A DNA stretch of 64,000 bases from contig NZ_FNTA01000004.1 in the NCBI RefSeq assembly GCF_900105055.1, positions 1,178,001 to 1,242,000 on the forward strand, in the 5' to 3' direction. Origin of the DNA: Amycolatopsis lurida. GTDB taxonomy: Bacteria > Actinomycetota > Actinomycetes > Mycobacteriales > Pseudonocardiaceae. Numbering within the stretch: position 1 is the stretch's first letter; each line of letters begins with the position of its first letter. The notes beneath the pieces are model-generated. The model searched no databases. It saw nothing but the letters and a program-made list of their open reading frames with translations, and was not told where the DNA came from. A program made the translations under genes and the position numbers. Shown here in pieces: positions 17,912 through 38,923 of this stretch.

Positions 17912-17920
17912 TCCTTGGGC

Positions 17921-17966
17921 CTCGTGAGTGGTAAAGACGGTTAGAACCGTCCTTACCACTCACGAG
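17921..17966. repeat. 46-base palindrome, copy A
   Basis: Two 22-base arms starting CTCGTGAGTGGT flank AG, with a single mismatch between arms. It lies between the convergent PHP and aldo/keto reductase genes and contains the reductase stop codon. The same element recurs at 20812-20859 and 38878-38923, so it is a dispersed family, probably acting as a bidirectional terminator. Confidence 0.85.
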
Positions 17967-18784
17967 CCGAGGGTGTCCGGGTCCGGCCCCAGCCGCTTCC
18001 CTTGCTCCAGCGTCGCGATCGCGGCGCCATCGTGCGCGTCGAGGGCGAAGTCGAAGACGTCCATGTTCTCCTTGATCCGTTCCGGCGTGACGGATTTCGG
18101 GATCACCAGGTGGTTCATCTCGATATGCCAGCGCAGCACGACCTGCGCCGGCGTCTTGCCGTGCTTCTCCGCGATCGTGGTGATCTTCTCGTCGGCGAGC
18201 AGGTCCCCGCCGCGCGCCAGCGGACCCCAGGCCTCGGTGACGATCTCGTGCTTCTCGTGGAAGTTCCGCAGCAGCGGCTGCTGCAGCCACGGGTGACATT
18301 CGATCTGGTTCACCGCCGGGACGATCCCGGTCTCCTCGATCAGCCGCTCCAGATGCGGGATCTGGAAGTTCGAGACGCCGATCGCCTTCGCCCGGCCGTC
18401 GGAGGCGATCTTTTCCAGCGCCCGCCACGTTTCCACGTACTTGTCCTGCGACGGCAGCGGCCAGTGGATCAGGTACAGGTCGACATACTCGAGACCGAGT
18501 TCACCCAGGCTCGTGTCGAAGGCACGCAACGCCGAGTCGTAGCCGTGCTCGGTGTTCCACAGTTTCGTGGTGACGAACAGTTCCTCGCGGGGCAGCCCGC
18601 TGGTGCGGACGGCCTCGCCGACTCCGCGTTCGTTGGCGTACAGGGTCGCGGTGTCGATGGCCCGGTAACCCGCCTCGATGGCGGTGCGGACCGCGCCCAC
18701 GACCTCGTCGTCGCCGATCTTGTACACCCCGAACCCGAGTTGCGGGAGGGACGTTCCGTTGTTCAGCCGAATGCTGGGGACCAT
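17960..18784 (-). CDS. Aldo/keto reductase
   Basis: This 274-residue protein is an NADPH-dependent aldo/keto reductase with the (beta/alpha)8 fold, similar to 2,5-diketo-D-gluconate reductases (AKR5). The catalytic tetrad is D44, Y49, K74 and H107 (AIDTATLYANE, VTTKLWN, LIHWP). The cofactor segment VIPKSVTPERIKENMDVF is near the C-terminus. The start ATG at 18784 is 26 bases downstream of the sensor kinase stop. The TGA lies inside palindrome copy A, so the last codons abut a repeated element. Confidence 0.93.
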   Translation of the reverse strand: MVPSIRLNNGTSLPQLGFGVYKIGDDEVVGAVRTAIEAGYRAIDTATLYANERGVGEAVRTSGLPREELFVTTKLWNTEHGYDSALRAFDTSLGELGLEYVDLYLIHWPLPSQDKYVETWRALEKIASDGRAKAIGVSNFQIPHLERLIEETGIVPAVNQIECHPWLQQPLLRNFHEKHEIVTEAWGPLARGGDLLADEKITTIAEKHGKTPAQVVLRWHIEMNHLVIPKSVTPERIKENMDVFDFALDAHDGAAIATLEQGKRLGPDPDTLGS

Positions 18785-18810
18785 ACTTGAACCGTAACCC
18801 CGGCCGCGGG

Positions 18811-19938
18811 TCAAGGCAGCGCGGGCAGGTGCACGGTCACCGAAAGACCGCCGCCCACAACGGGTTCCGCGGACACCGTGCCACCGTGCGCCTGGACCGC
18901 GGCCCGCACGATCGAAAGTCCCAGCCCGGCGCCGGTGCGGGCGGTCCTGGCGACGCCGGCGCGGCGGAACGGTTCGAACAGTTCGGGGACCGCGGCCGGG
19001 TCGAGCAGACCGCCGGACGACCGCACCCGCAGCACCGACCACTGTGGACCCGCTTGCGTGACGACGTCCAGCCAGCCACCGTCGACGTTGTGCCGCACGG
19101 CGTTCTCCAGCAGATTTCCCGCGATTCGTTCCAGCAGCGCCGGATCGCCGAACGTCGGCGCTCCCTGGGTGGCGAATTCGACACGGAGGCCGCGTTTCTC
19201 CGCGTCCGGCCGCGCCGCGCGCCACGCGATCGCGACGATCACCGCGAGATCGACCGGTTCCCTCGCCACCAGTCCCGCGCCGTCCGTGCGCGCGAGCAGC
19301 AGCAGCGAACCGACCAGCCGCTCGGCCCGCTCGGTCGCGTCGCGGACCACACCCGCCATCCGGCGTAATTCGGCTTCGTCCGCGTGCTCGTCGGCCAGGG
19401 TGACGTCGAGTTCGGTGCGGATGACCGCGAGCGGCGTCCGCAGTTCGTGGCTGGCGTTCGCGACGAAATGCCGTTGCGCGTCGAACGCGGCCTGCAACCG
19501 GTCGAGCATGTCGTCGAAGGTCTCGGCCAGTTCGGCGAGTTCGTCCTTCGTGCGGACCTCGCCGATCCGCTCCCCCATCGATTCGATCGACAGGCGCCGC
19601 GCGGTACCGGTGATCTCGCGCAGCGGTTGCAGGACCCGCGCGGTGAACGTCCACGCGAGGATCCCCGCCGCCAGCACGACGAAACAGAACGCGACCGCGC
19701 CGAACAGCAGCACCCGGTTCGTGGCGTACACCCGCAGGTGTTCGGTGACCGCGGAAGCGTCGACGTCGACGCCGTCGACCCGCACCGTGGTGCCCGGCGG
19801 CAGCTGCGGGACGGCGGAAACCGCGTCGCCGACCAGGTTCCAGGTCAGCCAGAGCAACAGGAGGCTGACCAGCGCCACCAGCCCGGTCGCGAGCAGCGTG
19901 ACCCGCGCGCGCAGGCTGCGGGCACCGGACAGGTTCAC
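18811..19938 (-). CDS. Two-component sensor histidine kinase (OmpR-system type)
   Basis: This 375-residue membrane kinase has two transmembrane helices (about 11-34 and 76-98) around a short extracytoplasmic loop, then HAMP (about 100-152), a HisKA domain with phospho-acceptor H164 (NASHELRTPL), and a HATPase_c domain with an N box (NLLENAVRHN) and a G box (GAGLGLSIV). The GTG start overlaps the response-regulator stop as GTGA, so the pair is translationally coupled. The signal is unknown; the extracytoplasmic loop is only about 40 residues. Confidence 0.92.
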   Translation of the reverse strand: MNLSGARSLRARVTLLATGLVALVSLLLLWLTWNLVGDAVSAVPQLPPGTTVRVDGVDVDASAVTEHLRVYATNRVLLFGAVAFCFVVLAAGILAWTFTARVLQPLREITGTARRLSIESMGERIGEVRTKDELAELAETFDDMLDRLQAAFDAQRHFVANASHELRTPLAVIRTELDVTLADEHADEAELRRMAGVVRDATERAERLVGSLLLLARTDGAGLVAREPVDLAVIVAIAWRAARPDAEKRGLRVEFATQGAPTFGDPALLERIAGNLLENAVRHNVDGGWLDVVTQAGPQWSVLRVRSSGGLLDPAAVPELFEPFRRAGVARTARTGAGLGLSIVRAAVQAHGGTVSAEPVVGGGLSVTVHLPALP

Positions 19939-20612
19939 CCGCGTGCGGTCCCCTGCTCCGGCACCCGGTAGCCGGAGCCGACGACGGTCTCGATGATGCC
20001 CGGCTCGCCGAGCTTCTTGCGCAGCGTCATCACGGTGACCCGGACGGTGGTGGTGAACGGGTCGGCGTTCTCGTCCCACACGCGTTCGAGCAGTTCCTCG
20101 CTGCTGACCACCGAACCGGCGGCCGACAGCAGCACCTCCAGGACACCGAACTCCTTGCGGGTCAGCTCGACCGGACCGCTCGCGCGGCGGACGGTCCGCC
20201 TCGCCGGATCCAGTTCGACGTCGCCCGAAGTCAGCAGCGGCGGTGCGGCCGGGGTCGCGCGGCGCCCGAGCGCCCGCACGCGCGCGACGAGTTCGGGAAA
20301 GGCGAACGGCTTGGCGAGATAGTCGTCGGCGCCGAGGGAAAGTCCGTCGACGCGGTCCGAGACGGAACTGCTCGCGGTCAGCATCAGGACACGGGTCAGC
20401 TCGCCGGACGCGACGATCTCGCGGCACAGGTCGTCACCGGACATCCCGGGCAGGTCGCGGTCGAGCAGCACGACGTCGTACCGGGTGACGGCGGCCTTCT
20501 CGTGCCCGTCGTCACCGGTGAGCGCGATGTCCACCGCCATACCCTCGCGCCGCAGGCCGCGTGCGATCGCGTCGGCGAGGGGTTCTTCGTCTTCGACTAC
20601 CAGAATTCGCAC
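19935..20612 (-). CDS. OmpR-family response regulator
   Basis: This 225-residue protein has a receiver domain (acidic VVEDE near the start, phospho-acceptor D51 in VVLLDRDLPG, conserved KPF) and a C-terminal winged-helix DNA-binding domain ending in VRVTVMTLRKKLG and SGYRV. The GTG at 20612 gives the usual MRILVVEDE start; a GTG at 20630 is an alternative. It is coupled to the histidine kinase through a four-base overlap. The gap upstream (20613-20851) holds no gene, only a 21-base-period array and palindrome copy B. Confidence 0.93.
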   Translation of the reverse strand: MRILVVEDEEPLADAIARGLRREGMAVDIALTGDDGHEKAAVTRYDVVLLDRDLPGMSGDDLCREIVASGELTRVLMLTASSSVSDRVDGLSLGADDYLAKPFAFPELVARVRALGRRATPAAPPLLTSGDVELDPARRTVRRASGPVELTRKEFGVLEVLLSAAGSVVSSEELLERVWDENADPFTTTVRVTVMTLRKKLGEPGIIETVVGSGYRVPEQGTARG

Positions 20613-20688
20613 GACCCTACGTTGCCACACATTCCTGAGAGTGACCTTATTGGACTTGTCCCTACCGCCGGTGCGCGAGCGGCGGGTT

Positions 20689-20796
20689 CGCGTGACTGAA
20701 CGGACGACACGCGGCGGACCCCGGCCGCGGTCGTGTCGTCCATCCAGTCACGCGTGTCGTCCCCCGGATCACGCGTGTCGTCCGGTCGATCACGTG
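20689..20796. repeat. 21-base-period inverted array 1
   Basis: One direct unit (20689-20709, starting CGCGTGACTGAACGG) is followed by three units in opposite orientation at 20734-20754, 20755-20775 and 20776-20796, each exactly 21 bases and containing TGTCGTCC and TCACG. A GC-rich spacer and a preceding small hairpin are nearly identical to those of the array at 54916. It lies between the response-regulator start and palindrome copy B. Confidence 0.8.
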
Positions 20797-20811
20797 ACAT
20801 CGCCGGTCCAG

Positions 20812-20859
20812 CCTCGTGAGTGGTAGGGACGGTTCTAACCGTCCCTACCACTCACGAGG
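20812..20859. repeat. 48-base perfect palindrome, copy B
   Basis: Two perfect 23-base arms starting CCTCGTGAGTGGTAGGG flank CT. It follows the PucR-type regulator gene and supplies its stop codon (20852-20854). It is a close relative of copies A and C and probably a terminator. Confidence 0.88.
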
Positions 20860-22336
20860 ACCAACGCAGGGCGAACCACAGCCGCATCCGGATCTCCGGA
20901 TCCGCCAGGTCCACCCCCAGCGCCCGTTCGATCTGCCCGATCCGGTGCCGGACGCTGTTGCGGTGCACGCCGAGTTCGGCGGCCGTCCGGTCCCAGCCGC
21001 CGTGGTGCGCGAGCCAGGTCCGCAGCGTGCCGACCAGTTCGCGGTCGCCCTTCCGGTCGAGTTCCCGCAGCGGCGCCAGCGCCTGGGCGGCGAACCCGGC
21101 CGCGGCGCCCGGATCGATCAGCGCGTCCAGCCCCGAACCGCCTTCCGCCACCACCGGCCGTTCCAGCGCGGCGGCCCGCGTCAGCAGCAACTCGATTTCG
21201 CCCGCCGCCTCGGGCAGCCGTCCGGGCGGGACGGGCGAACCCACGACCGCGAGCCAGCCGTCGGCGCGGAGCCGGTCGAGGTCGCCGATGTCCGGCGCCT
21301 CGCGGACGATCGCGGTGAACCGCGGCCCCGGCCGCAACCGGACGAGCGGCGTGTCGAGCCGGGCGCGCAGCCAGTCGTAGCGGGCGGCGACCTCGTTCGG
21401 CCCGCGGCGGTACGCGATCCCCGCGACCAGGCGGCGTTCGTCCCCGCCGAGCACGTCGGTCTCGCCCAGCAGCAACGCCGTGGCGGTGGCGCCCAGCCCG
21501 GCCGCGTCCGAACCCGCCCGGCCCACCAGCCCGAGCAGCGCCGCCCCGACCGACAGGATCGAGCGGTCCGCGCCGTCGAACCGCGCGACGCGGCCGACCA
21601 CGACCAGATGCGACGCCGTCGCCTGCGGGTACACCGGCTGGGCGACGACGTGCGTGCCGTCGGCCAGTTCCGTCGTGGCGCTGCGGATCCCCCGGCCCGT
21701 CCGGAGCGTGGCGACGAGCTCCCGGACTTCCGGCGGCAGCGGCGTCGGCGCCCCGTGGTCCGCGGCCAGGGCGTCGTCGACGCCGACCAGCGCCACCCAG
21801 GCCCCGAGCCGCCCGGCCAGCGCGCTCGCGAGTTCGCCGAGCCCGTCGCCGGCCGCCCTGGTCAGCGCCTCGCGCGCGACCGCGATCCGCCGCTGTTCGC
21901 GCTGCCCCGCCTCGGCCAGCGCGACCGACACCGCCCGGCTGATCGCGAGGAACGGCGTCCGCGGCTGGACGACCAGCAGCGGAAGCCCGTGCCGGGCACA
22001 CGCCGTCCGCAGTGGCGGCGGCAGCGTCTCGTAGGCACCCGGCGTGAGCCCGAACCCCAGCGCGGAGATCCCGCTTTCGGCCAGCCGCCGGACGTAGCGG
22101 TCGATCTCGGCCGCTTCCACCGGCAGGTTCACCCCGGCGGTGAGCAGCAGTTCCGCCCCGAGCAGGTACGGCGCGGGATCCAGCAGCTCGCTGACGTGCG
22201 CCCAGCGCACCGGGGCGTCGAGCGAGCCCGGCCGCAGGGTCTCCACGACCGGGTCGACCGCCAGTTCCGGGTTGCCGACCACGGCCCGTAACGGGACATT
22301 CACATCCGAGCCGAACGGATCATGGGTTTGGGTCAT
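20852..22336 (-). CDS. PucR-family transcriptional regulator
   Basis: This 494-residue protein has an N-terminal PucR ligand-sensing domain (about residues 10-130), a central GGDEF-like CdaR region and a C-terminal helix-turn-helix (AHHGGWDRTAAELGVHRNSVRHRIGQIERALG). PucR/CdaR regulators often control purine, allantoin, proline or polyamine catabolism. The ATG at 22336 follows GCGAGGA; an ATG at 22372 lacks such a site. It diverges from the symporter/ureohydrolase operon and is its likely regulator. Its stop codon is provided by palindrome copy B. Confidence 0.88.
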   Translation of the reverse strand: MTQTHDPFGSDVNVPLRAVVGNPELAVDPVVETLRPGSLDAPVRWAHVSELLDPAPYLLGAELLLTAGVNLPVEAAEIDRYVRRLAESGISALGFGLTPGAYETLPPPLRTACARHGLPLLVVQPRTPFLAISRAVSVALAEAGQREQRRIAVAREALTRAAGDGLGELASALAGRLGAWVALVGVDDALAADHGAPTPLPPEVRELVATLRTGRGIRSATTELADGTHVVAQPVYPQATASHLVVVGRVARFDGADRSILSVGAALLGLVGRAGSDAAGLGATATALLLGETDVLGGDERRLVAGIAYRRGPNEVAARYDWLRARLDTPLVRLRPGPRFTAIVREAPDIGDLDRLRADGWLAVVGSPVPPGRLPEAAGEIELLLTRAAALERPVVAEGGSGLDALIDPGAAAGFAAQALAPLRELDRKGDRELVGTLRTWLAHHGGWDRTAAELGVHRNSVRHRIGQIERALGVDLADPEIRMRLWFALRWSS

Positions 22337-22379
22337 TTCATCCTCGCTCGCGCCGGAGTTCGGATGGATCATCCCATGT

Positions 22380-22396
22380 CGTTCAAGCTGCGAACG
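22380..22396. promoter_or_regulatory. Possible operator between pucR-type gene and symporter operon
   Basis: Inverted arms CGTTC and GAACG are separated by seven bases that include AGCT. A TACGGT -10-like element follows at 22401-22406 before the symporter gene. The short arms make this a weak prediction. Confidence 0.3.
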
Positions 22397-22446
22397 AACC
22401 TACGGTGACCCGAACGAAGCGAACAGCCCAAGTCAAGGAGGACACC

Positions 22447-23898
22447 GTGGCCGGTGACTACGCGGTGATCGCGCTCTACATAGCGGGCATGATCGGGGTG
22501 GGCTGGTTCGGGCTGCGGCTCGCCAAGACCAAATCCGACTACCTCGTCGCGGGCCGCCGTCTCGGCTGGTTCATGTACTCCGGCACGATGTCCGCGGTCG
22601 TCCTCGGCGGCGCTTCGACGGTCGGCGGGGTGAAACTCGGCTACACCTACGGCATCTCCGGCGCCTGGCTCGTGATCGCGATCGGCGTCGGCATCCTGGT
22701 CCTCCACACATTGTTCGCGCGGCGGCTGGTGAAGCTGCGCGTCTACACCGTCGGCGAGATGCTCGACCTGCGCTACGGCGGCTCCACCAGCACCATCTCC
22801 GGTGTGGTCATGTGGGGCTACACGCTGATGCTGACCGTCACCTCGACGCTGGCGTTCGCCACCATCTTCAAGGTCCTGTTCAACGTCCCGAGCTGGGCGG
22901 GCATCGCCATCGGCGGATCGATCGTGGTGCTCTACTCGGTGCTGGGCGGCATGTGGTCGATCACGCTGACCGACATCGTCCAGTTCGTCATCAAGACCAT
23001 CGGCATCCTGCTGATCCTGCTGCCGGTCTCGATCGTCTCGGCCGGCGGTTTCGACGGGATGGCCGCGCGGCTGGACGAGAGCTACTTCGAACTGACCGCC
23101 ATCGGCGGCGACACGATCTTCACCTACTTCCTCGTCTACAGCTTCGGCCTGCTGATCGGACAGGACATCTGGCAGCGCGTGTTCACCGCGAGGACGCCGG
23201 GCATCGCCACCGGCGGCGGCGTCATCTCCGGCGTCTACTGCCTGGTCTACGGTCTCGCCGGCGCGCTGATCGGCACCGCGGCCAAGACGCTGTACCCGAA
23301 CCTCGCCAGCGCGCAGGACGCGTTCGCGACCATCGTCGAGGATCAGCTGCCCGCCGGAGTCCGCGGCCTGGTGCTCGCCGCGGCGCTCTCGGCGATGATG
23401 TCGACCGCGAGCGGCGCCCTGATCGCCTGCTCGACGGTCAGCACCTCGGATCTGCTTTCCAAGCTGGGCCTCAAGAAGGCAGCGGACGAGGTCGCGAGGA
23501 ACCGGGTCACCACGCTGGTCCTCGGCATCGTCGCGATCGGGATCGCGATGGTCGTGGACGACGTCGTCAACGCGCTGACCATCGCCTACGACATCCTCGT
23601 CGGCGGCCTGCTGGTCGCGATCATCGGCGGGCTGGCCTGGAAACGCGGCACCCGCCAGGGCGCGCTCGCGTCGATGGTCGTCGGCACCGTCGTGGTCATC
23701 ACGTTCATGGTCGTCGACGGCGTCGAGGCCAACAGCCCGATCTACTGGGGCCTCGGGTCCAGCCTCGCGGTGTACCTGCTGGTCAGCTTCCTCACCCCGC
23801 GTACCTCGGACGAGATCCTCACCGTGTGGACCCGCCGCCTGAACGGCAGCGCGGCCGACGAAGAAGAAGAGGCGAAACTCGCCGCTTCGCAGTCCTGA
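22447..23898 (+). CDS. Sodium:solute symporter (SSS family)
   Basis: This 483-residue integral membrane protein has the SSS layout of about 13 hydrophobic helices, with family stretches such as SDYLVAGRRLGWFMYSGTMSA and LAAALSAMMSTASGAL. It imports a small solute with Na+. The GTG start at 22447 has AAGGAGG at 22435-22441. It is the first gene of the operon with the ureohydrolase, ThDP enzyme, aldehyde dehydrogenase and NCS1 permease, so a guanidino compound, amino acid or amine is a likely substrate. The exact solute is not evident. Confidence 0.88.
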   Translation: MAGDYAVIALYIAGMIGVGWFGLRLAKTKSDYLVAGRRLGWFMYSGTMSAVVLGGASTVGGVKLGYTYGISGAWLVIAIGVGILVLHTLFARRLVKLRVYTVGEMLDLRYGGSTSTISGVVMWGYTLMLTVTSTLAFATIFKVLFNVPSWAGIAIGGSIVVLYSVLGGMWSITLTDIVQFVIKTIGILLILLPVSIVSAGGFDGMAARLDESYFELTAIGGDTIFTYFLVYSFGLLIGQDIWQRVFTARTPGIATGGGVISGVYCLVYGLAGALIGTAAKTLYPNLASAQDAFATIVEDQLPAGVRGLVLAAALSAMMSTASGALIACSTVSTSDLLSKLGLKKAADEVARNRVTTLVLGIVAIGIAMVVDDVVNALTIAYDILVGGLLVAIIGGLAWKRGTRQGALASMVVGTVVVITFMVVDGVEANSPIYWGLGSSLAVYLLVSFLTPRTSDEILTVWTRRLNGSAADEEEEAKLAASQS

Positions 23899-23919
23899 CA
23901 ACCATTCGAAGGAGACACA

Positions 23920-24873
23920 GTGCCTGAGCAGACCCCGATCGGACCCGTCGACTCTTCGAGGGTGCCCCGGTTCGCCGGTTTCGCGACCTTCGCGAGGCTG
24001 CCGCGGATCGATCAGGTCGAGCATGCCGACGTCGCCGTCGTCGGGGTGCCGTTCGACGCCGGAGTGTCCTACCGCCCCGGCGCGCGGTTCGGCCCCGCGG
24101 CGCTGCGTGAGGCCAGCCGCCTCCTTCGCCCGTACCACCCGGAACTCGACGTTTCCCCGTTCGCCGAAACGCAGGTGGTCGACGCCGGCGACATCGCGCT
24201 CAACCCGTTCAACATCGGCGAGGCGATCGAGACCCTGCAAAGCGAGGCCGAAGCGCTGACCGCGAACGGGACGCGCCTGGTGACCGTCGGCGGCGACCAC
24301 ACGATCGCGCTGCCGCTGCTGCGTGCGGCGGCGAAGAAGCACGGACCGGTGGCACTGCTGCACTTCGACGCGCACCTCGACACCTGGGACACCTACTTCG
24401 GCGAGCCGTACACCCACGGCACCCCGTTCCGGCGGGCGTCCGAGGAAGGCCTCCTCGACACCGAAGCGCTGTCCCACGTCGGCACGCGCGGCCCGCTGTA
24501 CGGCAAGCGGGATCTCGAAGAGGACCGCCGCCTCGGATTCGGCATCGTCACCTCCGGCGACGTCATGCGCCGCGGGGTCGCCGAGACCGTCGACGCGTTG
24601 CGCCAGCGCATCGGCGGCCGCCCGCTCTACATCTCGGTCGACATCGACGTGCTCGACCCGGCGCACGCGCCGGGTACCGGGACCCCCGAAGCGGGCGGGA
24701 TGACCAGCCGCGAACTGCTGGAGATCCTGCGCGGGCTGCGCGACTGCAACCTCGTCGGAGCCGATGTGGTGGAGCTGGCCCCGGCTTACGATCATGCCGA
24801 GATCACCGCCATCGCGGCTTCCCACGTCGCCTACGACCTGGTGAGCCTGCTCAGTTTGGGGAAGGGCGCATGA
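23920..24873 (+). CDS. Agmatinase-family ureohydrolase (possible guanidinobutyrase)
   Basis: This 317-residue protein belongs to the arginase/agmatinase family, which hydrolyses guanidino groups to urea. The binuclear Mn ligands are all present: H127 (GGDHT), D150-H152-D154 (DAHLD) and D241/D243 (SVDIDVLDP). The family includes agmatinase, guanidinobutyrase and guanidine hydrolases; the substrate loop cannot be read reliably. The neighbours, a ThDP decarboxylase-like enzyme and an aldehyde dehydrogenase, favour 4-guanidinobutyrate. The GTG start follows AAGGAGA, and the stop overlaps the next start (ATGA). Confidence 0.88.
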
Positions 24874-26525
24874 CCGGCACTGAACGGATAGGCGGCGACG
24901 TAGTCGTCGAAACCCTGCACGCGCTCGGGGCGGACACCGTGTTCGGCCTGCCCGGCCAGCACGCGCTCGGCCTGTTCGAAGCGCTGCGGCGCACGGACGA
25001 CCTGCGCGTCATCAGCTCGCGGGTCGAGAACAACCTGGCTTTCGCGGCCGACGGGCACGCCCGCGCCCGGCTCGCGGCGGATCCCGGAGGCCCGGTCCCG
25101 GTGACGCCGATGATCGTGTCGACCGGCCCCGGCGCGTTGCTGACTTTGGCTTCGTTGCAGGAATCCCGGGCCGCGTCGGTGCCGGTGCTCGGGATCTCCA
25201 GCCAGATCCCGGTGGCCGGGCTCGGCGGTGGACGGCACGGCTATCTCCACGAACTGCCCGACCAGCAGGCCAGTTTCCGCGACGTGGTGAAGTCGGTGCA
25301 CGTGGTGCGCACCGTCAGCCAGATCCCGACGGCGCTGCGCGAAGCCTGGGAATCGGCGGCGACCGCGCCGTACGGCCCGGTGTGGGTCGAGATCCCGCAG
25401 GACATCTTGCTTGCACCGGTGGAGCTGCCCCGGATCACGTCGGTGACGGCGCGGCCCGCACCGCTCGAACCGTTGCCGGAGCTCGTCACCGAAGCCGCGA
25501 ATCTCCTTGGCGCGGCGAAGAATCCGGTGATCCTCGCCGGTGGCGGCGCCCTGCGCGCGGGCGCGCAGGCGGAACTGAAGGCGCTCGCGGAGGCACTGCG
25601 CGCGCCGGTGCTCTCGACGTTCGGCGGCAAGGGCGTCTTCGGCTGGGACCACGCACTGTCCGGGCAGTCGTGGCTCGAAGACTGGCACAGCACCGAGTTC
25701 CTGTCGGCCGCGGACGTGCTGCTGGTGCTGGGTTCCGGGCTCGGTGAGCTGTCCAGCAACTATCGCGAATTCGCCCCGCGCGGCCGGGTGATCCAGATCG
25801 AGGCCGATCTCGGAAAGCTGGAGTCGAACTATCCGGCGCTGGGCATCCACGCCGACGTCCGCCTTGCCCTGCAAGGACTTCTGGAGCAGGTTCCGTTCCG
25901 TCAGAGCGACGGCGTCGCCGAGAAGGCGGTCGCGGATCTGCTGGCCAAGGTGCGCGAACGTCTCGACGGCCAGGCACTCGAAACCGAGCGCAAGCTGATC
26001 GAGGACATCCGCGCCGCGGTCCCCGAAGGCGCCCAGACGTTCTGGGACATGACGATCGCGGCCTACTGGGCCTGGTCGGCGTGGAACCCCGAGGGCGCGC
26101 CGATCCACACCGCGCAGGGCGCGGGCGGCCTCGGATACGGCCTGCCCGGCGCGCTCGGCGGCGCGGCGGCGACCGGCGGCCCGGCGCTCGCGGTGTCCGG
26201 TGACGGCGGCGCGATGTACGGCATCGCGGAGCTGGCCACGGCGGTCCAGCACGGGCTGGACGTCACGTGGCTCGTCATCGACGACGGCGGCTACGGCATC
26301 CTGCGCGAGTATCTGACCGGCGCGTTCGGCCAGTCCACGGCCACCGAACTCGCGCGGCCCGATTTCGCCGCGCTGGCACAGTCCTTCGGCGTCGACGCCA
26401 TCGTGTCCTCTTTGGACACGGTCGGGAAGGACCTTGCCGAAGCCCTCGGCACCCCCGGTCCGTCGCTGGTCGTCCTCCCCGCCCTGTTGAAGATGTTCGA
26501 GCCGACCCACCTGGAGAAGAAATGA
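24870..26525 (+). CDS. Thiamine diphosphate-dependent enzyme (2-ketoarginine decarboxylase-like)
   Basis: This 551-residue protein has the acetolactate-synthase-like layout: Pyr domain with the activating glutamate E53 ([10 protein letters not shown]), a central domain, and a PP domain with GDGG (D445). The downstream Mg-binding position, usually Asn-Asn, reads D471-D472 ([10 protein letters not shown]). In Pseudomonas the related AruI decarboxylates 2-ketoarginine to 4-guanidinobutyraldehyde. The flanking ureohydrolase and aldehyde dehydrogenase fit that route, but no aminotransferase is present here. Both ends overlap the neighbouring genes by ATGA. The family is certain; the substrate is inference. 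Confidence 0.85.
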
Positions 26526-27928: not shown

Positions 27929-27948
27929 AGCTGTACCCGGAGGTCCCC

Positions 27949-30203: not shown

Positions 30204-30256
30204 ATCCCCGCGACCTCGTCGTCCGCGCGGTCGGCCGGATCGTGGGCTGAAGGGGA

Positions 30257-30283: not shown

Positions 30284-30285
30284 CT

Positions 30286-31406: not shown

Positions 31407-31409
31407 CCT

Positions 31410-33314
31410 TCAGCGCCGCGTGTCCTCCGGCGCCGGTGTCCGGCTCGCCAGCTTCGCCGACCACTCGGTCACCCGCCGCGCCACATCCTGCGCGGTGAGC
31501 CCGACGCGGGCCAGCACCTCCTCGCGCGAACCGTGGTCGTGGAACACCTGCGGCACCGCGAGATCGCGCAGTGGCACATCGCATTCGGCGTCGCGGAACA
31601 GCGCGGCCAGCGCGGAACCGAAGCCACCGTGCCGCCCGCTGTCCTCGACGGTCACGACGAGCTTGTGCTGCTCGGCCAGCGCCACCAGCTCGGCGGGCGC
31701 CGGGACGACCCAGCGCGGGTCCACCACGGTCACACCGATGCCCTGATCGGCCAACCGGTCCGCGGCGGCGAGCCCGAGCATCGCGAACGCGCCCACGGCG
31801 ACGAGCAGGACGTCGGCTTCACCGGCGGGTTTGCGCAGCACGTCCACCGTGCCGACGCGTTCCACGGCGGGCACCGAGTCGACCACCCCGCCCTTGGAGA
31901 ACCGCAGCGCCGTCGGCCCGTCCTCGACCGCGACGGCCTCCCGCAGTTCCTCGCGCAGCGTTCCGGCGTCTCGCGGAGCGGCGACCCGCATGCCCGGCAC
32001 CATGCCGAGCAGCGAGAGATCCCACATGCCGTGGTGACTCGGCCCGTCCGGGCCGGTGATACCCGCCCGGTCCAGCACCAGCGTCACCGGCTGGCGGTGC
32101 AGCGCGACGTCCATCAGGACCTGGTCGAAAGCGCGGTTCAGGAAGGTCGAGTACACGGCGACGACGGGGTGCTTGCCGCCCATCGCGAGACCCGCGGCCG
32201 AAGTCACCGCATGCTGCTCGGCGATCCCGACGTCGTACCAGCGGTCGGGGTACGCCTCGGCGAACTTGTGCAGCCCGGTCGAACGCAGCATCGCCGCGGT
32301 GATCGCGACGACGTCCTCGCGGTCGGCGCCGATCTTCACCAGCTCGTCGGCGAAGACCCCGGTCCAGCTCGGGCCCTTGACCGGCGGCAGGCCGGTTTCC
32401 GGGTCGATCGGGTCGGTCTGGTGCATCTGGTCGGCCTGGTTGGTCACCGCGGGCTCGTAGCCGTGGCCCTTCTCGGTGACCACGTGGACGATCACGGCGC
32501 CACCGAAGTCGCGAGCGCTCTGGAACGCCTTCTCCAGTGCGACGAGGTCGTGCCCGTCGACCGGGCCGAGGTACTTGAGGCCGAGGTCGGAGAACATCAT
32601 CTGCGGGCTCAGCGCGTCCTTGAGCCCCGCCTTCGCCGCGTGCAACGCCGCGTAGATCGGCTTGCCGACGACGGGCGTGTGCCGCAGTAGTTCCTTGCCG
32701 CGGTCCAGCACGCGCTCGTAGCCCGGCTTGAGGCGCAGCGACGCGAGGTGGTCCGCGACGCCGCCGATGGTCGGCGAGTACGAACGGCCGTTGTCGTTGA
32801 TGACGATGACGACCGGGCGGCGCGGGTTCGCGGCGATGTTGTTGAGCGCCTCCCAGCACATGCCGCCGGTCAGCGCGCCGTCGCCGACGACGGCGATCGC
32901 GTGCCTGCCGCCCCCGCCGAGCTCGAACGCCTTCGCCAGACCGTCCACATAGGACAACGCGGTCGACGCGTGGCTGTTCTCGACGAGGTCGTGCTCGCTC
33001 TCGCAACGCGCCGGGTAGCCGGTGAGGCCGCCGAGCTGGCGCAGCTTGCCGAAGCCGTCGTGACGGCCGGTGACGATCTTGTGCACATACGCCTGGTGAC
33101 CGACGTCCCACACGATGGCATCGCTCGGCGAATCGAAGACCCGGTGCAGCGCCATCGTCAGCTCGACCACACCCAGGTTCGGGCCAAGGTGACCACCGGC
33201 GAGCCGCACCTTTTCGACGAGGAAGTCCCGGATCTCCGCGGCCAGCTCGTCGAGCTGCTCCGGGTTCATCCGCTTCAAGTCGGCCGGTCCGTGCACGGAC
33301 TCGAGCAACGTCAC
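31410..33314 (-). CDS. dxs: 1-deoxy-D-xylulose-5-phosphate synthase
   Basis: This 634-residue ThDP enzyme condenses pyruvate and glyceraldehyde 3-phosphate in the first step of the MEP isoprenoid pathway. H42 (AGGHLGPN), the ThDP motif GDGALTGG from 144 and NDN at 173-175 are present, and the activating Glu lies in [12 protein letters not shown]. The GTG start follows AGGTGGGAGA, and a TAGACT -10-like element is visible upstream on the minus strand near 33355. It belongs to the conserved rnd-sigA block but is displaced from rnd by accessory genes and followed by an IS element. Confidence 0.96.
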
Positions 33315-33530
33315 TCTCCCACCTCGCCTGGTTCCTCTTCCGCCGTTCCGACCAGTCTACGGAGGCCGCCTGAGAGTCTTCCGTCCGCCGCGTCACGGGT
33401 CACATGTCAGAAAATCACCACTCAACGCCCGATGGTGTGAACATGGTCTCTTTTGCCAAGTAGCGGTCACGTCGGGTGGCCGCGATAATCGCTGATCGAC
33501 GGTTGAGCAGAAGCCGGTTCGGAGGGCTTG

Positions 33531-35015
33531 ATGGCGGACTTTTTCATCGGTGGCGAATGGGTCGACGCGGTCGGCGGTGGTCGCCGGGAGATCCGCTGCC
33601 CCGCGGACGGGTCGTTGGTCGCGGAAGTCGCCGAAGGCACCCGTGAAGACACTGAAGCGGCCATCGCCGCCGCGAGGAAGGCGTTCGACACCGGCCCGTG
33701 GCCGCAAACGCCCGCTCCGCAGCGCGGTGACCTGCTGCTGAAGGCCGCCGACCTGCTCGACCGCGACGCCGCGGCCTTCGCCCGCGCCGAGTCGCTCGAC
33801 ACCGGGAAACGGCTGGTCGAGAGCGAATATGACATGGCCGACATCGCCGCGTGCCTGCGTTACTTCGGCAAGCTCGCCGCGAACGACGCCGGCCGCGTCG
33901 TCGACACCGGCAACCCGGACGCGTTCAGCCGGATCGTGCACGAGCCCGTCGGCGTCTGCGGGCTGATCACGCCGTGGAACTACCCGCTCCTGCAGACCAT
34001 TTGGAAGGTCGCCCCCGCACTCGCGGCGGGCAACACGTTCGTCCTCAAGCCCAGCGAGCTGACCCCGCACACCTCGATCATGCTGATGAAGCTGCTGACC
34101 GAGGCAGGGCTCCCCGGCGGCGTCGCGAACCTGGTGCTCGGCGCCGGTGCGCAGGCCGGGGCACCGCTGTCCGAGCATCCGGACGTCGACCTCGTGTCGT
34201 TCACCGGCGGCCTCGCGACCGGCAAGATCATCGCCGCCTCCGCGGCCGCGACCATCAAGAAGGTCGCGCTGGAACTGGGCGGCAAGAACCCGAACGTCGT
34301 CTTCGCGGACGCGGATTTCGAGACCGCCGTCGACTACGCGCTGACCGCGGTGTTCCTGCATTCCGGCCAGGTCTGCTCGGCGGGCGCGCGGCTGATCGTC
34401 CAAGAGGAGTGGCATGACAGGTTCGTCGACGAACTCGTCCGCCGCGCCGAACTGATCCGACTGGGTGGACCTTTCGACCCGAAGGCTGAAACCGGTCCGC
34501 TGGTCTCGGCCGCCCATTTGGAAAAGATCGAACGCTACGTCGCCGCGGCGCTCGAAGAGGGCGCCGTCCTGCTCACCGGCGGCAAACGCCCCGACGATCG
34601 CGAACTCGCGAAGGGGCACTACTACCTGCCGACCATCCTCGACCACGTGAAGCAGGGCAGCAGCGCCGTCGTCGACGAATCGTTCGGCCCGGTGCTCACC
34701 GTCGAGACCTTCACCGACGAGGACGACGCCGTCCGCATCGCCAACGACACCCACTACGGCCTCGCCGGCGCGGTGTTCACCTCGGACGCCTCCCGCGCGC
34801 AGCGGGTGGCGAACCGGCTGCGGCACGGCACGATCTGGATCAACGACTTCCACCCGTACCTGCCGCAGGCGGAATGGGGTGGCTACAAGCAGTCCGGCTT
34901 CGGGCGCGAACTCGGCCCGACCGGGCTCGCCGAGTACACGGAGGCGAAGCACATCTACCAGAACCTCCGGCCCGCTCCACAGCGCTGGTTCTCCGGGGAG
35001 TCAGCGTCCAACTAA
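33531..35015 (+). CDS. Aldehyde dehydrogenase, betaine-aldehyde dehydrogenase-like
   Basis: This 494-residue NAD(P)-dependent aldehyde dehydrogenase has N150 (PWNYP), E248 (LELGGKNP) and C282 (GQVCSAG). It leads an operon with an APC permease and a GMC oxidoreductase, an order that recalls choline to betaine aldehyde to glycine betaine oxidation; ethanolamine or another amino alcohol is also possible. The ATG at 33531 has GGAGGG at 33521-33526. The 216-base gap to dxs carries both divergent promoters and no other gene. Confidence 0.85.
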   Translation: MADFFIGGEWVDAVGGGRREIRCPADGSLVAEVAEGTREDTEAAIAAARKAFDTGPWPQTPAPQRGDLLLKAADLLDRDAAAFARAESLDTGKRLVESEYDMADIAACLRYFGKLAANDAGRVVDTGNPDAFSRIVHEPVGVCGLITPWNYPLLQTIWKVAPALAAGNTFVLKPSELTPHTSIMLMKLLTEAGLPGGVANLVLGAGAQAGAPLSEHPDVDLVSFTGGLATGKIIAASAAATIKKVALELGGKNPNVVFADADFETAVDYALTAVFLHSGQVCSAGARLIVQEEWHDRFVDELVRRAELIRLGGPFDPKAETGPLVSAAHLEKIERYVAAALEEGAVLLTGGKRPDDRELAKGHYYLPTILDHVKQGSSAVVDESFGPVLTVETFTDEDDAVRIANDTHYGLAGAVFTSDASRAQRVANRLRHGTIWINDFHPYLPQAEWGGYKQSGFGRELGPTGLAEYTEAKHIYQNLRPAPQRWFSGESASN

Positions 35016-35031
35016 AGAGGGGAAATTGCCG

Positions 35032-36543
35032 ATGAGCAATCCTTCCGATGACGGCCTCGCCGGTTTCGGCTACAAACAGGAACTCGAAAGAACGCTCGGC
35101 AATTTCCACACCTTCGCCGCCGGGATCAGCTACATCTCGATCCTGACGGGGACCTTCCAGTTGTTCTACTTCGGCTTCAGCTTCGGCGGGCCGGCGTACT
35201 GGTGGTCGTGGCCGATGGTGTTCGTCGGCCAGCTGATGGTGGCGCTGTCGTTCGCCGAACTGGCCGCGCACTATCCGGTCGCCGGTTCGATCTACAACTG
35301 GTCGAAACGGCTCGGCAGCCCGCACGTCGCCTGGATGGCCGGGTGGATGATGCTGACCGCGTCGATCGTCAGCATCGCCGCGGTCGCGCTGGCGTACCAG
35401 ATCACGCTCCCGCAGATCTCGTCGTTCTTCTCCTTCTCCGGCGACAGCGCGGTGAACGCGGTCATCCTGGGCACGGCGCTGATCGTGTTCACGACGTTGG
35501 TGAACGCCTGGGGCGTCAAGCTGATGGCGCGGATCAACAGTGCCGGGGTGTTCATCGAACTGATCGCCGCGGTCCTGCTGATCGTCGCGCTCGCGGTGAA
35601 CATCACGCGGGGCCCCGAGGTCGTCATGCAGACCAACAACACCGGCGCCGACCAGCCGTGGGGCTATTTCGGGGCGTTCCTGGTCGCGTCGCTCGCGTCG
35701 ACCTACGTCATGTACGGCTTCGACACCGCCAGCTCGCTCGGCGAGGAGTCCCACGACCCGCGCAAGAACGCGCCCAAGGCGATCCTGCGCGCGCTGATCG
35801 CGTCGTTCGTCATCGGCGGGCTCATCCTCATCCTCGCGCTGATGGCCGTGGGCGACATCAACAACCCGCAGATCGCCACCGGCGGGCTCCAGTTCATCGT
35901 GCTGGACGTCCTGGGCAGCACGATCGGCACGATCTTCCTGCTCGCGGTGGTCATCGCGATCACCGTGTGCAACCTGGCCGTGCAGTCGGCGGCGATCCGG
36001 ATGATGTTCGCGATGGGCCGCGACAACAACCTGCCCGCCGGGAAGCATCTGGCACGGGTGTCGCCGAAGACGAAGACGCCCGTGATCCCCGCGATCGTCT
36101 CCGGCGTCATCGCGGTGCTGATCCTGGTGGTCAACGTCGGCCAGCCGCAGATCTTCACGGTCATCACCAGTATCGGCATCATCATGATCTACCTGGCCTA
36201 TCTACTGGTGACCGTTCCGATGCTCGTCAAGCGCCTGCGCGGGCAGTGGCCGCCGCCGAAGGTGGAGGGCACCAAGTACTTCTCGCTCGGCAAGCTGGGG
36301 CTGCCGGTCAACATCCTCGGCGTGCTGTGGGGCGGTGCGATCGTGGTGAACCTGGCCTGGCCGCGGCGTGAGGTCTACAACGCGACCGAGCCGTATCACT
36401 GGTACCTCGAATGGGGGGCCGTGCTGTTCGTCGGCGCGGTGGCGGTCGTCGGTTTCGCGTATTACTGGTTCGTCCTGCGGCACAAGAGCGGCGTCCTGGC
36501 CGATCACGCCGCGGAAGCACTTCCCGAGGAGGCAGCACAGTGA
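35032..36543 (+). CDS. APC-superfamily permease of the GMC/aldehyde dehydrogenase operon
   Basis: This 503-residue permease has about 12 transmembrane segments. Its N-terminus (GYKQELERTLGNFHTFAAG) and much of its length parallel the permease at 2144, marking a paralogous pair. The ATG follows AGAGGGGAAA and lies 17 bases after the aldehyde dehydrogenase stop. The stop overlaps the oxidoreductase start (GTGA). An amine or amino alcohol oxidised by the two enzymes is the likely cargo. Confidence 0.86.
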   Translation: MSNPSDDGLAGFGYKQELERTLGNFHTFAAGISYISILTGTFQLFYFGFSFGGPAYWWSWPMVFVGQLMVALSFAELAAHYPVAGSIYNWSKRLGSPHVAWMAGWMMLTASIVSIAAVALAYQITLPQISSFFSFSGDSAVNAVILGTALIVFTTLVNAWGVKLMARINSAGVFIELIAAVLLIVALAVNITRGPEVVMQTNNTGADQPWGYFGAFLVASLASTYVMYGFDTASSLGEESHDPRKNAPKAILRALIASFVIGGLILILALMAVGDINNPQIATGGLQFIVLDVLGSTIGTIFLLAVVIAITVCNLAVQSAAIRMMFAMGRDNNLPAGKHLARVSPKTKTPVIPAIVSGVIAVLILVVNVGQPQIFTVITSIGIIMIYLAYLLVTVPMLVKRLRGQWPPPKVEGTKYFSLGKLGLPVNILGVLWGGAIVVNLAWPRREVYNATEPYHWYLEWGAVLFVGAVAVVGFAYYWFVLRHKSGVLADHAAEALPEEAAQ

Positions 36544-38093
36544 CCGGAGAGTTCGACTACATCGTCGTCGGCGGCGGGACGGCGGGTTCGGTGGTCGCGG
36601 CGAGACTCTCGGAAGACCCGGACGTCACCGTGGCGCTCCTCGAAGCCGGACCGTCCGATGTGGACGACCCGGCGGTGCTGGAACTGACGAAGTGGATGGC
36701 GCTGCTGGAGTCCGGCTACGACTGGGATTACCTGGTCGAGCCGCAGGAGTCCGGCAACTCCTTCCTGCGCCACGCCCGCGCACGGGTGCTCGGCGGCTGC
36801 TCGTCACACAACTCGTGCATCGCGTTCTGGGCGCCGGCCGAAGACCTCGACGAATGGGCGTCGCTGGGCCTGCCCGGCTGGTCCTCGAAGGATATTTTCC
36901 CGCTGTACAAACGTCTTGAGACCAACGACGGCCCCGGTGACCACCACGGCCGCTCCGGCCCGGTGACGATCCGCTCGGTGCCGCCGAACGACCCGACCGG
37001 CGTCGCGCTGCTGCAGGCCTGTGAGCAGGCGGGCATCCCGAGGACGGAGTTCAACTCGGGCAAGACCGTGACGCACGGGGCGAACTGGTTCCAGATCAAC
37101 GCGCGCGAGGACGGCACCCGCTCGTCGGCGTCGGTGTCGTACCTGCACCCGATCATCGGCGAACGGCCGAACCTGGAGATCATCACCGGCGCGCGCGTCC
37201 GGCGGCTGCTGTTCGACGGCAAACGCTGCACCGGCGCGGAATACCTGGCCGACGACCTGATCCACGGCGTTCCGCTGCGGGCACGGCGCGAGGTCGTCCT
37301 GTCCTCTGGCGCGATCGACACGCCGAAACTCCTGATGCTGTCGGGAATCGGCCCCGCCGAGCATCTGCGCGAGGTCGGTGTCGACGTGCTGGTGGACTCC
37401 CCCGGCGTCGGCGAGAACCTGCAGGATCACCCCGAAGGCGTCATCCAATGGGACGCGCTGCAGCCGATGACGACCGAGTCCACGCAATGGTGGGAGATCG
37501 GCATCTTCACCACCACGGAGGAAGGTCTCGACCGGCCGGACCTGATGTTCCACTACGGCTCGGTGCCGTTCGACATGAACACCCTCCGGCAGGGGTATCC
37601 GACCACGGAGAACGGCTTCTGCCTGACCCCGAACGTCACCCGCGCCCGGTCGACCGGGACGGTGCGGCTGCGCAGCCGCGACTACCGGGACAAGCCGAAG
37701 GTGGACCCGCGATACTTCACCGACGAACACGACATGCGCGTGATGACCTACGGCATCAAACTGGCGCGCAAGATCGCCGAGCAGCCCGCGCTGGACGAAT
37801 GGGCGGGCACGGAACTGGCGCCCGGCAAGGACGTCAAAACCGACGACGAGATCGCCGACTACCTGCGCAAGACGCACAACACGGTCTATCACCCCTCATG
37901 CACGGCGAAGATGGGCGGCGACGACGACCCGATGGCCGTGCTGGACGCGCGTCTGCGAGTGCGAGGCGTCGAGGGACTGCGGGTCGCGGACGGTTCGGCG
38001 ATGCCGTTCCTGGTCGCGGTGAACCCGTGCATCACGACGATGGCGATCGGTGAGAAGTGTGCGGACATGCTGAAGGAGGACGCGCGCTCCTAA
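36540..38093 (+). CDS. GMC-family FAD oxidoreductase, choline dehydrogenase-like
   Basis: This 517-residue flavoenzyme has the N-terminal FAD motif GGGTAG (residues 11-16), the GMC signature around RVLGGCSSHN, and the C-terminal substrate region with YHPSCTAKMG and NPCITTMAIGEK, which hold the catalytic His and Asn. The family oxidises alcohols such as choline. The GTG at 36540 follows GAGGAGG and overlaps the permease stop. With the upstream aldehyde dehydrogenase it would carry out a two-step alcohol to acid oxidation. Confidence 0.88.
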   Translation: MTGEFDYIVVGGGTAGSVVAARLSEDPDVTVALLEAGPSDVDDPAVLELTKWMALLESGYDWDYLVEPQESGNSFLRHARARVLGGCSSHNSCIAFWAPAEDLDEWASLGLPGWSSKDIFPLYKRLETNDGPGDHHGRSGPVTIRSVPPNDPTGVALLQACEQAGIPRTEFNSGKTVTHGANWFQINAREDGTRSSASVSYLHPIIGERPNLEIITGARVRRLLFDGKRCTGAEYLADDLIHGVPLRARREVVLSSGAIDTPKLLMLSGIGPAEHLREVGVDVLVDSPGVGENLQDHPEGVIQWDALQPMTTESTQWWEIGIFTTTEEGLDRPDLMFHYGSVPFDMNTLRQGYPTTENGFCLTPNVTRARSTGTVRLRSRDYRDKPKVDPRYFTDEHDMRVMTYGIKLARKIAEQPALDEWAGTELAPGKDVKTDDEIADYLRKTHNTVYHPSCTAKMGGDDDPMAVLDARLRVRGVEGLRVADGSAMPFLVAVNPCITTMAIGEKCADMLKEDARS

Positions 38094-38106
38094 GGCTCGC
38101 TTGAGC

Positions 38107-38134
38107 GAGGCCCCTGGTTTCGGCCGGGGGCCTT
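38107..38134 (+). terminator. Hairpin terminator after the GMC oxidoreductase
   Basis: Arms GAGGCCCCTGG and CCGGGGGCCTT pair at 9 of 11 positions around a short loop and are followed by TCGCTTT. It starts 14 bases after the stop codon. Confidence 0.65.
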
Positions 38135-38325
38135 CGCTTTGCCCGGAAAAACCGGTGGAGCCGGCGGTGCCGGGCCATTACCGTGCTGCCGGACCACGCC
38201 GCCGAGCAGAGGGCCTGCCGTTGTACACCCTGTGAGACCTCCCGAGCGCTGATTTCGTCGCGCGTCGCGCTTTGGCGCCGCGCTTCCTTTTGCTGCGGAT
38301 TTCTCACTGGAACGGGTGTATTCCT

Positions 38326-38868
38326 GTGCTCGAAAACTGGGTCGTCGTACCGACCTGCCTGCCTGTCGTCCTCCGCCGTTGCCGCTCCTGCCCGTCCGGG
38401 CGTTTCCGGGCGAACGGCAAATTCCGGGTCAACGCCAACCACAAACTCCTCGACGTCTGGCTCCTCGTGCGCTGTGTCGTGTGCGAGGACACCGCGAAGC
38501 TCACGATCCTGGAGCGCGTGAACGTGCGCTCCGTCCGGCCCGAGTTGTTGGACCGGCTGCACGAGAACGACCTCGCCCTGGCGGCCGAACTGCTCCAGGA
38601 TCCCGCCGTGCGGCGCCGGAACCGCGTCGCCCTCGATTGGGAGGGCGCCTGGCGGCTCCATACCGGCTCTTTGGGTCACTGGGACTTTCTCGAAGTCTCG
38701 GTGCGCTTCGCGGCCCCGATTCCCGTCCGGCCGGCTCGGTTGATCGCCGAAGGGTGTGGTCTTTCGCGGGGCGAGGTCGAGCGGCTTGTCGAGGAGGGAA
38801 AGGTGGTCTCAGCGGTGCGGTTGACCGGGAAAGTGTCCGGCGACTTCACCTTCACGCTGAAGCGCTGA
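38326..38868 (+). CDS. DUF1062 protein
   Basis: This 180-residue protein is a DUF1062 member of unknown function. It has two CxxC pairs, C19/C22 (RRCRSCPSG) and C50/C53 (VRCVVCEDT), that probably bind zinc. Between and after them lie the conserved GKFRVNANHKLLDVWLLV and the helical ERVNVRSVRPELLDRLHEND. The GTG at 38326 gives the N-terminus LENWVV, which fits the family. The gene stands alone, ends 9 bases before palindrome copy C, and the 232 bases before it contain only the previous terminator and no gene. Confidence 0.8.
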   Translation: MLENWVVVPTCLPVVLRRCRSCPSGRFRANGKFRVNANHKLLDVWLLVRCVVCEDTAKLTILERVNVRSVRPELLDRLHENDLALAAELLQDPAVRRRNRVALDWEGAWRLHTGSLGHWDFLEVSVRFAAPIPVRPARLIAEGCGLSRGEVERLVEEGKVVSAVRLTGKVSGDFTFTLKR

Positions 38869-38877
38869 CCTTTGGGA

Positions 38878-38923
38878 CTCGTGAGTGGTGAGGACGGTTA
38901 GAACCGTCCTCACCACTCACGAG
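38878..38923. repeat. 46-base perfect palindrome, copy C
   Basis: Perfect 22-base arms starting CTCGTGAGTGGTGAGG flank AG. It lies 9 bases after the DUF1062 stop and directly before the 21-base-period array 3. It is the third copy of the family seen at 17921 and 20812. Confidence 0.88.

What the first reader, a model, noticed from the sequence alone, without database searches (positions are those of the whole stretch)
17921..38923. Family of long CTCGTGAGTGGT palindromes at gene ends
Three 46-48 base palindromes (17921, 20812, 38878) share arms but differ at compensating positions: AAAG/CTT, AGGG/CCCT, GAGG/CCTC. Compensation preserves pairing and implies selection for the hairpin. Copies B and C each touch a 21-base array, suggesting a composite element. 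The arms also resemble the array units (CGTGAnTGG...GGACG).
Basis: seen in the sequence. Interest (0 to 1): 0.62.

Follow-up and report, generated by a model that had tools for sequence, protein, structure and literature searches.

The report
Repeated gene-end hairpins, also docking sites
Some soil bacteria of the genus Amycolatopsis carry up to a few hundred near-identical 46-base mirror-image sequences just after gene stop codons, probably marking the ends of messages, and a family of mobile DNA elements has repeatedly inserted itself at their exact centre.

Summary
The three palindromes are real and belong to a dispersed family: 139 copies at up to 3 mismatches in this 9.05 Mb Amycolatopsis genome, 0 to 293 in 79 congeners. 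They sit at gene 3' ends: of 61 sampled copies 59 lie within 30 nt of a stop codon, 42 are convergent, 2 divergent. Two-sided stem changes exist, but one-sided ones are as common at orthologous sites, copy A is itself mismatched, and stems are species-specific (A. orientalis AATG 55 of 61, here 1 of 61), which points to copying or conversion rather than pairing selection alone. The link with 21-base arrays fails (2 of 61 copies). The family is REP-like, but no RAYT domain was found in 80 genomes and there is no U-tract. Unexpectedly, six integrative elements with a large serine recombinase lie exactly at the centre of such palindromes; a relative keeps one site empty and intact. Best reading: REP-like bidirectional 3'-end hairpins, spread by unknown machinery, also used as multi-copy attB sites. 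Termination is inferred.

The parts
17921..17966 (.). Palindrome copy A, between convergent genes 15836-17911 (+) and 17960-18784 (-); its right arm supplies the TGA stop of the minus gene
20813..20858 (.). Palindrome copy B, at the 3' end of the minus-strand gene 20852-22372, whose TGA stop lies in the arm
38878..38923 (.). Palindrome copy C, 9 nt after the stop codon of gene 38326-38868 (+)
17943..17944. Central dinucleotide AG of copy A. AG or CT in 61 of 61 own and 137 of 137 named-relative copies; other centres occur in other congeners. It corresponds to the dinucleotide at which serine-recombinase elements split other copies
20689..20794 (.). 21-base unit inverted/tandem array near copy B: a separate dispersed family, not part of the palindrome element
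38941..39048 (.). 21-base unit inverted/tandem array near copy C: same separate family

Best explanation
The palindromes are members of a REP-like family of extragenic palindromes found, as far as searched, almost only in Amycolatopsis. Shown: high and patchy copy number; placement right after stop codons, mostly between convergent genes, with the arm sometimes supplying the stop codon; two-sided stem variation with species-specific stems; at two orthologous sites, occupation by other palindrome families or by none in relatives; and use of the exact centre as integration site by ICE-like elements with a large serine recombinase. Inferred: transcribed from either side, the copy folds into a 22-bp hairpin that marks the mRNA 3' end (a U-poor actinobacterial terminator, or a stop for 3' exonucleases after Rho-dependent termination), insulating convergent genes. 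Inferred: copies arise by duplication or conversion of existing palindromes through machinery not identified (no RAYT), and may be lost by slippage. The integrative elements use them as harmless multi-copy attB sites, because an insertion there lies between genes.
For: Copy number 139 here, 0-293 in 79 congeners, 42 of 150 genomes in all, reversed-pattern control 0. Context: 59 of 61 own and 117 of 134 placed relative copies within 30 nt of a stop; convergent 42 against 9.3 expected from intergenic length (P 6e-21), divergent 2 against 23.5; relatives 75 against 23.1 and 5 against 45.7 (own background counts only gaps of 50 nt or more). Stop codon inside the element at 25 gene ends of own copies, 17 of them the TGA of CTCGTGAG. 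Turnover at orthologous sites. Species-specific stems; two-sided changes and centre flips at orthologous sites. Serine-recombinase elements: both junctions in 6 of 6, intact empty site with the same flanks. REPs are likewise mainly at uni- and convergent gene ends (PMC3733652, passages); Streptomyces terminators have long stable hairpins and few Us (PMC12207403, passages).
Against: No transcript-end data. No U-tract: mean 1.77 T in the 10 nt downstream, 3 of 93 own gene ends with 5 or more; relatives 1.47, 5 of 182, below the 3-4 Us reported for Streptomyces. The G.U test did not show RNA-level selection. One-sided changes are as common as two-sided ones at orthologous sites. At site D a second hairpin further along the spacer is shared by the relatives, so the exchanged palindrome need not be the only terminator there. 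The copying machinery is unknown. Most copies analysed come from DNA chosen because it carries the repeat.
Confidence: 0.62

Rival explanations
1. DNA-level element first: the sequence is conserved because a site-specific recombinase recognises it (two symmetric half sites around a non-palindromic centre, the layout of a serine-integrase attB), and the RNA hairpin is a by-product.
For: Six integrations at the exact centre; AG/CT centre in 198 of 198 copies from own and named relatives; AG-CT flips at 3 of 16 orthologous pairs; own arms far more conserved than pairing requires.
Against: Serine integrases do not copy attB sites (recalled). Copy number does not track this integrase: G017, G048 and G052 have 293, 282 and 224 copies and no match to it at E 1e-40. 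Other congeners have other centres, such as CC/GG, AA and AC. The 3'-end placement is not explained, and other palindrome families share it.
Confidence: 0.13
2. MITE: non-autonomous remnants of a DNA transposon whose terminal inverted repeats are the two arms, joined by internal deletion.
For: Arms are also found roughly 100-600 bp apart around nested inverted-repeat DNA, and in two cases seen (L350, L356) CT stands at both junctions.
Against: In the loci with a right arm within 600 bp no gene was called between the arm and its nearest right arm (one 44-codon call lies inside the nested locus L042); the interiors hold other palindromes, so nesting inside older palindromes is simpler. No autonomous copy or regular target duplication seen, but the scan was partial.
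Confidence: 0.13
3. Ordinary intrinsic terminators kept only by selection for base pairing.
For: Position and stability; two-sided changes.
Against: Independent terminators would not share a 46-nt sequence at 139 places; stems are species-specific; no U-tract. In the zero-copy relative G004, 16 long palindromes in 400 kb formed no repeated family.
Confidence: 0.06
4. Binding sites of a chromosome-organising or regulatory protein dimer.
For: Near-perfect dyad symmetry and dispersed copies.
Against: 39 of 80 genus genomes have no match at 3 mismatches; the middle of the arms varies; no candidate protein was sought or found.
Confidence: 0.06

Closest known systems
REP elements (GTAG/CGTC palindromes, BIMEs, REPINs)
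   Same: Short high-copy extragenic palindromes at 3' ends between unidirectional or convergent genes; subfamilies with alternative complementary stem residues; targets of mobile elements (PMC3733652 and PMC1525189, passages).
   Different: 22-bp stem with 2-nt centre instead of 5-13 bp (GTAG) or 8-9 bp (CGTC) stems; no GTAG/CGTC foot seen at the three window copies; no RAYT (PF01797) in any of 80 genus genomes, though the CGTC type is also said to lack a dedicated transposase; actinobacterial.
Intrinsic terminators of Streptomyces found by Term-seq (U-poor, long hairpins)
   Same: Long stable hairpin after a stop codon, few Us, covariation (PMC12207403, passages).
   Different: Here one 46-nt sequence is repeated over a hundred times, is nearly perfectly symmetric and often shared by convergent genes.
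Multi-targeting large serine recombinases
   Same: One recombinase family integrating at several sites; the class includes enzymes whose target sequence occurs at many places, some with motifs more complex than AT-rich ones (PMC10083194, passages).
   Different: The target here is a dispersed 46-bp palindromic gene-end repeat; the words palindrom* and repetitive do not occur in that paper's main text.
IS elements that insert into REPs (IS621, ISPpu9/10, IS1397)
   Same: Mobile DNA that uses dispersed extragenic palindromes as targets (PMC1525189, passages).
   Different: Here 10.9-12.6 kb integrative elements with a serine recombinase; the own one also has an FtsK/SpoIIIE-like ATPase.

Membership tests
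REP (GTAG/CGTC superfamilies) | High-copy extragenic palindrome at gene 3' ends | tested here: met
REP (GTAG/CGTC superfamilies) | Unpaired GTAG or CGTC tetranucleotide at one end | tested here: inconclusive
   Not seen at the three window copies; flanks of the other copies were not scored
REP (GTAG superfamily) | Cognate RAYT / Y1 transposase | tested here: not met
   PF01797: 0 of 80 genus genomes; control rings in 5 of 14 known genomes
REP (GTAG/CGTC superfamilies) | Stem of 5-13 bp | tested here: not met
   22 pairs
Intrinsic terminator | Stable hairpin just after the stop codon | tested here: met
   three window copies folded; positions of 61 and 134 copies
Intrinsic terminator | U-tract after the hairpin | tested here: not met
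   mean 1.77 T in 10 nt, 93 own gene ends; 1.47, 182 ends in relatives
Intrinsic terminator | Transcript 3' ends at the hairpin | not testable with these tools
   needs Term-seq
attB of a large serine recombinase | Element with a serine recombinase near one end, flanked by the two halves of the site with the same central dinucleotide | tested here: met
   6 of 11 near full-length recombinase hits, both junctions; domain scan done for the own protein only
attB of a large serine recombinase | Intact site at the same place in a strain without the element | tested here: met
For the G072 element no intact palindrome was seen in the 5 orthologous loci
attB of a large serine recombinase | Recombination in vitro or in vivo | not testable with these tools
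   needs an assay
MITE | Autonomous partner with the same terminal repeats | tested here: inconclusive
   none seen in a partial half-arm scan of four genomes: 40 hits, 30 as loci, 26 printed

The most novel reading that the evidence does not exclude
Some Amycolatopsis keep hundreds of dispersed, symmetric serine-integrase docking sites: the repeat's sequence and its nearly constant AG/CT centre are maintained through recombinase activity (flips, nested insertions and conversions at the centre) as well as through service as bidirectional gene-end hairpins. Host and integrative elements would then share one repeat as terminator and landing pad.
Probability: 0.13. Interest if true: 0.85.

Novelty: new variant of a known kind. 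Interest (0 to 1): 0.6.

Why it matters
It gives Actinobacteria a REP-like repeat system without the known REP transposase, makes the question of how such palindromes spread and homogenise testable on named strains, and supplies a serine integrase with a 46-bp target present up to hundreds of times per genome, of possible use for multi-copy integration in antibiotic producers. It also warns that two-sided stem changes in near-perfect palindromes need not mean selection on an RNA.

Tried and rejected
Composite element with the 21-base arrays: rejected. RAYT spread: rejected for PF01797. Autonomous transposon with these arms as ends: not found in what was seen. Rfam at gathering threshold: 0 matches in window 17000-39500. 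U-tract terminator scan of 17000-22000: 1 site found against 2.1 in shuffles, not at copy A or B; copy C was not scanned. RNA-level selection by G.U versus A.C: inconclusive, 7 against 4. Target-site duplication: site B in G014 is empty and would fit at most a 2-nt repeat, too little to conclude. Loss: G021 and G015 at site B keep only CTCACGAG, which would fit slippage between short repeats, not tested further. Empty site of the G072 element: 5 orthologous loci looked at, no intact palindrome recognised. Papers: ten searches; among the rows listed (often 8-15 of several hundred) I saw no paper on such repeats in Amycolatopsis or on a serine integrase using REP-like sites. The library lacks most subscription journals, and of papers I saw listings and, for five, passages only.

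Errors of mine: the column target_has_pal used a wrong spacing and is meaningless (replaced); the minus-strand rows were reversed without complementing because a variable was overwritten (redone; the species table covers part of the loci and is replaced); loci on the minus strand were missed (redone). One of 17 rows (L150 with itself, two nearby copies) was dropped before counting 16; three of the 16 are one site in three species.
Full report
OBSERVATION. The window holds three 46-nt palindromes, CTCGTGAGTGGTnnnnACGGTT-AG/CT-AACCGTnnnnACCACTCACGAG, at 17921, 20813 and 38878. B and C pair perfectly; A has one A.C mismatch. As RNA, with short flanks, they fold at -44.6 to -50.0 kcal/mol with z about -9. 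The window lies in a 9,047,228-base genome in four contigs. No call names the species of the window itself.

FAMILY. At up to 3 mismatches the own genome has 139 copies; 42 of 150 genomes searched have any, 41 of the 80 genus genomes and one of another genus in the family, with 0 to 293 copies and a reversed-pattern control of 0 throughout. The pattern was built on the window's form, so other subfamilies are undercounted: G074 and G047, for example, carry forms such as GTGGCGATCACGG.

CONTEXT. With a codon-usage gene caller written for the purpose I placed 61 own copies found in 1.244 Mb of fetched DNA. Most of that DNA was chosen because it carries a copy: the window, stretches around listed exact-arm copies of contigs C1-C3 and of C4 up to 2.2 Mb, ten stretches at arbitrary round coordinates, and four (L205-L208) in a part of C4 where no exact-arm copy was listed. 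42 copies are convergent, 17 tandem, 2 divergent, none inside a called gene; 59 lie within 30 nt of a stop; 34 have two gene ends within 60 nt; 16 of 17 tandem copies are closer to the upstream stop than to the downstream start. Expected from intergenic lengths (gaps of 50 nt or more): 9.3 convergent, 23.5 divergent. In 120 loci of named relatives 134 of 137 copies could be placed: 75 convergent, 54 tandem, 5 divergent, 117 within 30 nt of a stop, 44 of 54 tandem ones closer to the upstream stop (with another rule, counts one inside a gene). The element often carries the stop codon: 25 gene ends in own copies, 17 of them the TGA of CTCGTGAG.

NOT THE ONLY FAMILY. A scan of the same own DNA for any long palindrome found 175: 94 convergent, 63 tandem, 6 divergent, 10 inside genes, 2 at edges; 65 fall in this family and others in clusters of 19, 13, 9, 5, 5, 4, 3, 2 and 2 with other sequences (the 19 and 9 may be related) but the same placement. 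In the 14 own regions not fetched for a copy the density is 10.7 per 100 kb; in the zero-copy congener G004 it is 4.0 with no repeated family, and in G096 of the same order 2.0. So gene-end hairpins are general, but their multiplication into repeat families was seen only in the copy-bearing genomes among the few examined.

COMPENSATION. Among 23 distinct own sequences 97.2% of pair cells are standard pairs (shuffles 94.8%, 0 of 500 reach it), 5 of 22 pairs show two-sided changes (mean 1.6; 2 of 500) and there are 9 further pair types (mean 6.6; 21 of 500); such shuffles do not keep relatedness. The variable 4-mer matches between arms in 53 of 61 own copies (33.6 expected) and 125 of 137 relative copies (47.6 expected). 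At 16 orthologous pairs of occupied sites, 7 have two-sided changes (9 in all), 7 have one-sided changes (11 positions), 3 are identical and 3 have the centre flipped between AG and CT. Within a genome the stems are rather uniform and differ between species: AATG on both arms in 55 of 61 A. orientalis copies, 1 of 60 in A. decaplanina, 1 of 61 here. Pure compensatory drift under selection would not give most sites of one species the same stem; copying or conversion would. The G.U/A.C asymmetry that RNA selection should leave was 7 to 4 in 71 tandem copies, inconclusive.

TURNOVER. At window site A, 19 of the 30 fetched loci were examined: 5 carry the family with stems AAAG/AAGG, AAGG, GCTAGG, AATG and GCTAGG; 6 carry other long palindromes (G007, G014, G031, G002, G008, G006); G072, G052 and G015 have 23-39 nt without one by eye; G019, G021, G042, G045 and G018 have longer, complex or unresolved spacers. 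At site D (below), 18 relatives read by eye give 6 with the family, 6 with two other families, 5 with none at that position and 1 unresolved; a second, different hairpin further along the spacer is shared by most of them, so the exchanged palindrome is not the only candidate terminator there.

DOCKING SITE. A search for half palindromes led to C4:2583920-2595452 (L369). There an element lies between CTCGTGAGTGGTAAGGACGGTT-CT and CT-AACCGTCCTTACCACTCACGAG, 11,533 bases from arm to arm; its own ends, GCACCGACTGGGTCAACCAAC and CCACCGTCTAAGTCAACCAAC, are inverted repeats of each other. It encodes a 504-aa serine recombinase (PF00239, E 1.6e-29; Zn_ribbon_recom slightly below its cut-off; phrog_95 integrase, E 9.9e-69) starting about 140 nt from the left junction, and a 697-aa FtsK/SpoIIIE-like protein. 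Ten of 80 genus genomes have the recombinase at E 1e-40: 11 near full-length hits and two partial ones with stops. Six of the 11 (own, G079, G006, G072, and two in G077) are flanked on both sides by arms of this palindrome family, with different stems and CT or AG at both junctions. In G077's first element the two halves are only partly complementary, in G006 one base differs, and G079's left arm is cut by the contig end. Three others (G020, G027, G063) abut a different sequence (TCGTGGTC..CACCAAG), G023 another, and G016 was not resolved; since the G077 recombinases (69-73% identical to the own one) are no closer to it than those four (70-73%), site choice does not follow overall identity. 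At the own insertion site G017, which contig lengths identify as A. decaplanina DSM 44594, has the uninterrupted 46-mer in the same flanks. For the G072 element no intact empty site was recognised in the five orthologous loci. By the general rules of serine integrases (recalled), the palindrome is the attB of these elements.

NESTING. Other half arms enclose further palindromes and arrays over some 100-600 bp, with no gene called between arm and nearest right arm, so the centre is a repeated insertion point. How these nested pieces arrive is open.

MECHANISM. Shown: family, placement, turnover at two sites, species-specific stems, attB use by sequence evidence. Inferred: 3'-end or terminator function, spread by copying or conversion. 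U-poor terminators with long hairpins are documented in Streptomyces (PMC12207403, passages), so the missing U-tract does not exclude termination, but a mean of 1.77 T in 10 nt is low even for that group; an exonuclease barrier after Rho-dependent termination fits equally well.

COMPARISON. It works like a REP: REPs too favour convergent and unidirectional 3' ends and have alternative complementary stems (PMC3733652, passages). It is not filed as one: no RAYT domain in the genus genomes, a longer stem, and no foot motif at the three window copies; the CGTC type of REP is also said to lack a dedicated transposase, so that point separates it from the GTAG type only. The main texts of the two REP papers queried do not contain the word Amycolatopsis.

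Noticed in passing
L369 1921-13453 (G000:C4:2583920-2595452): 11.5-kb ICE-like element with a large serine recombinase and an FtsK/SpoIIIE-like protein inserted at the exact centre of a palindrome copy; five further elements in four other genomes.
   Followed up: yes
window 20689-20794, 38941-39048, 54915-55051: 21-base unit arrays facing each other as long inverted repeats: a separate dispersed family, with matches in other congeners including some without the palindrome (e.g. G026, G050).
   Followed up: partly
own loci L159-L218: Nine further clusters of long palindromes at gene 3' ends (e.g. GTACGTGAAGGCCCCCTTCAC, GCGAAAGCCACTTTCGC, CGCAATTCGTCACCTACTTGCG); some may be subfamilies of one another.
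   Followed up: partly
L111 4179-4704, L042 7374-7680, L172 9879-10175: Russian-doll nesting: palindromes and other inverted repeats lie inside or behind split copies of the CTCGTGAGTGG palindrome.
   Followed up: partly
window 40422-40470: Perfect 21-bp inverted repeat inside the called gene 39268-40497, near its 3' end.
   Followed up: no
window 15531-15576: Hairpin of another sequence (21 bp, 90% paired) directly after the stop of gene 13411-15522.
   Followed up: no
L371 / end of G079:C4: A contig of the A. roodepoortensis assembly ends inside a palindrome arm; such repeats may break assemblies.
   Followed up: no
L290 and L295 (site B in G021, G015): Only the last eight bases of the palindrome remain, as deletion by slippage might leave.
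   Followed up: no
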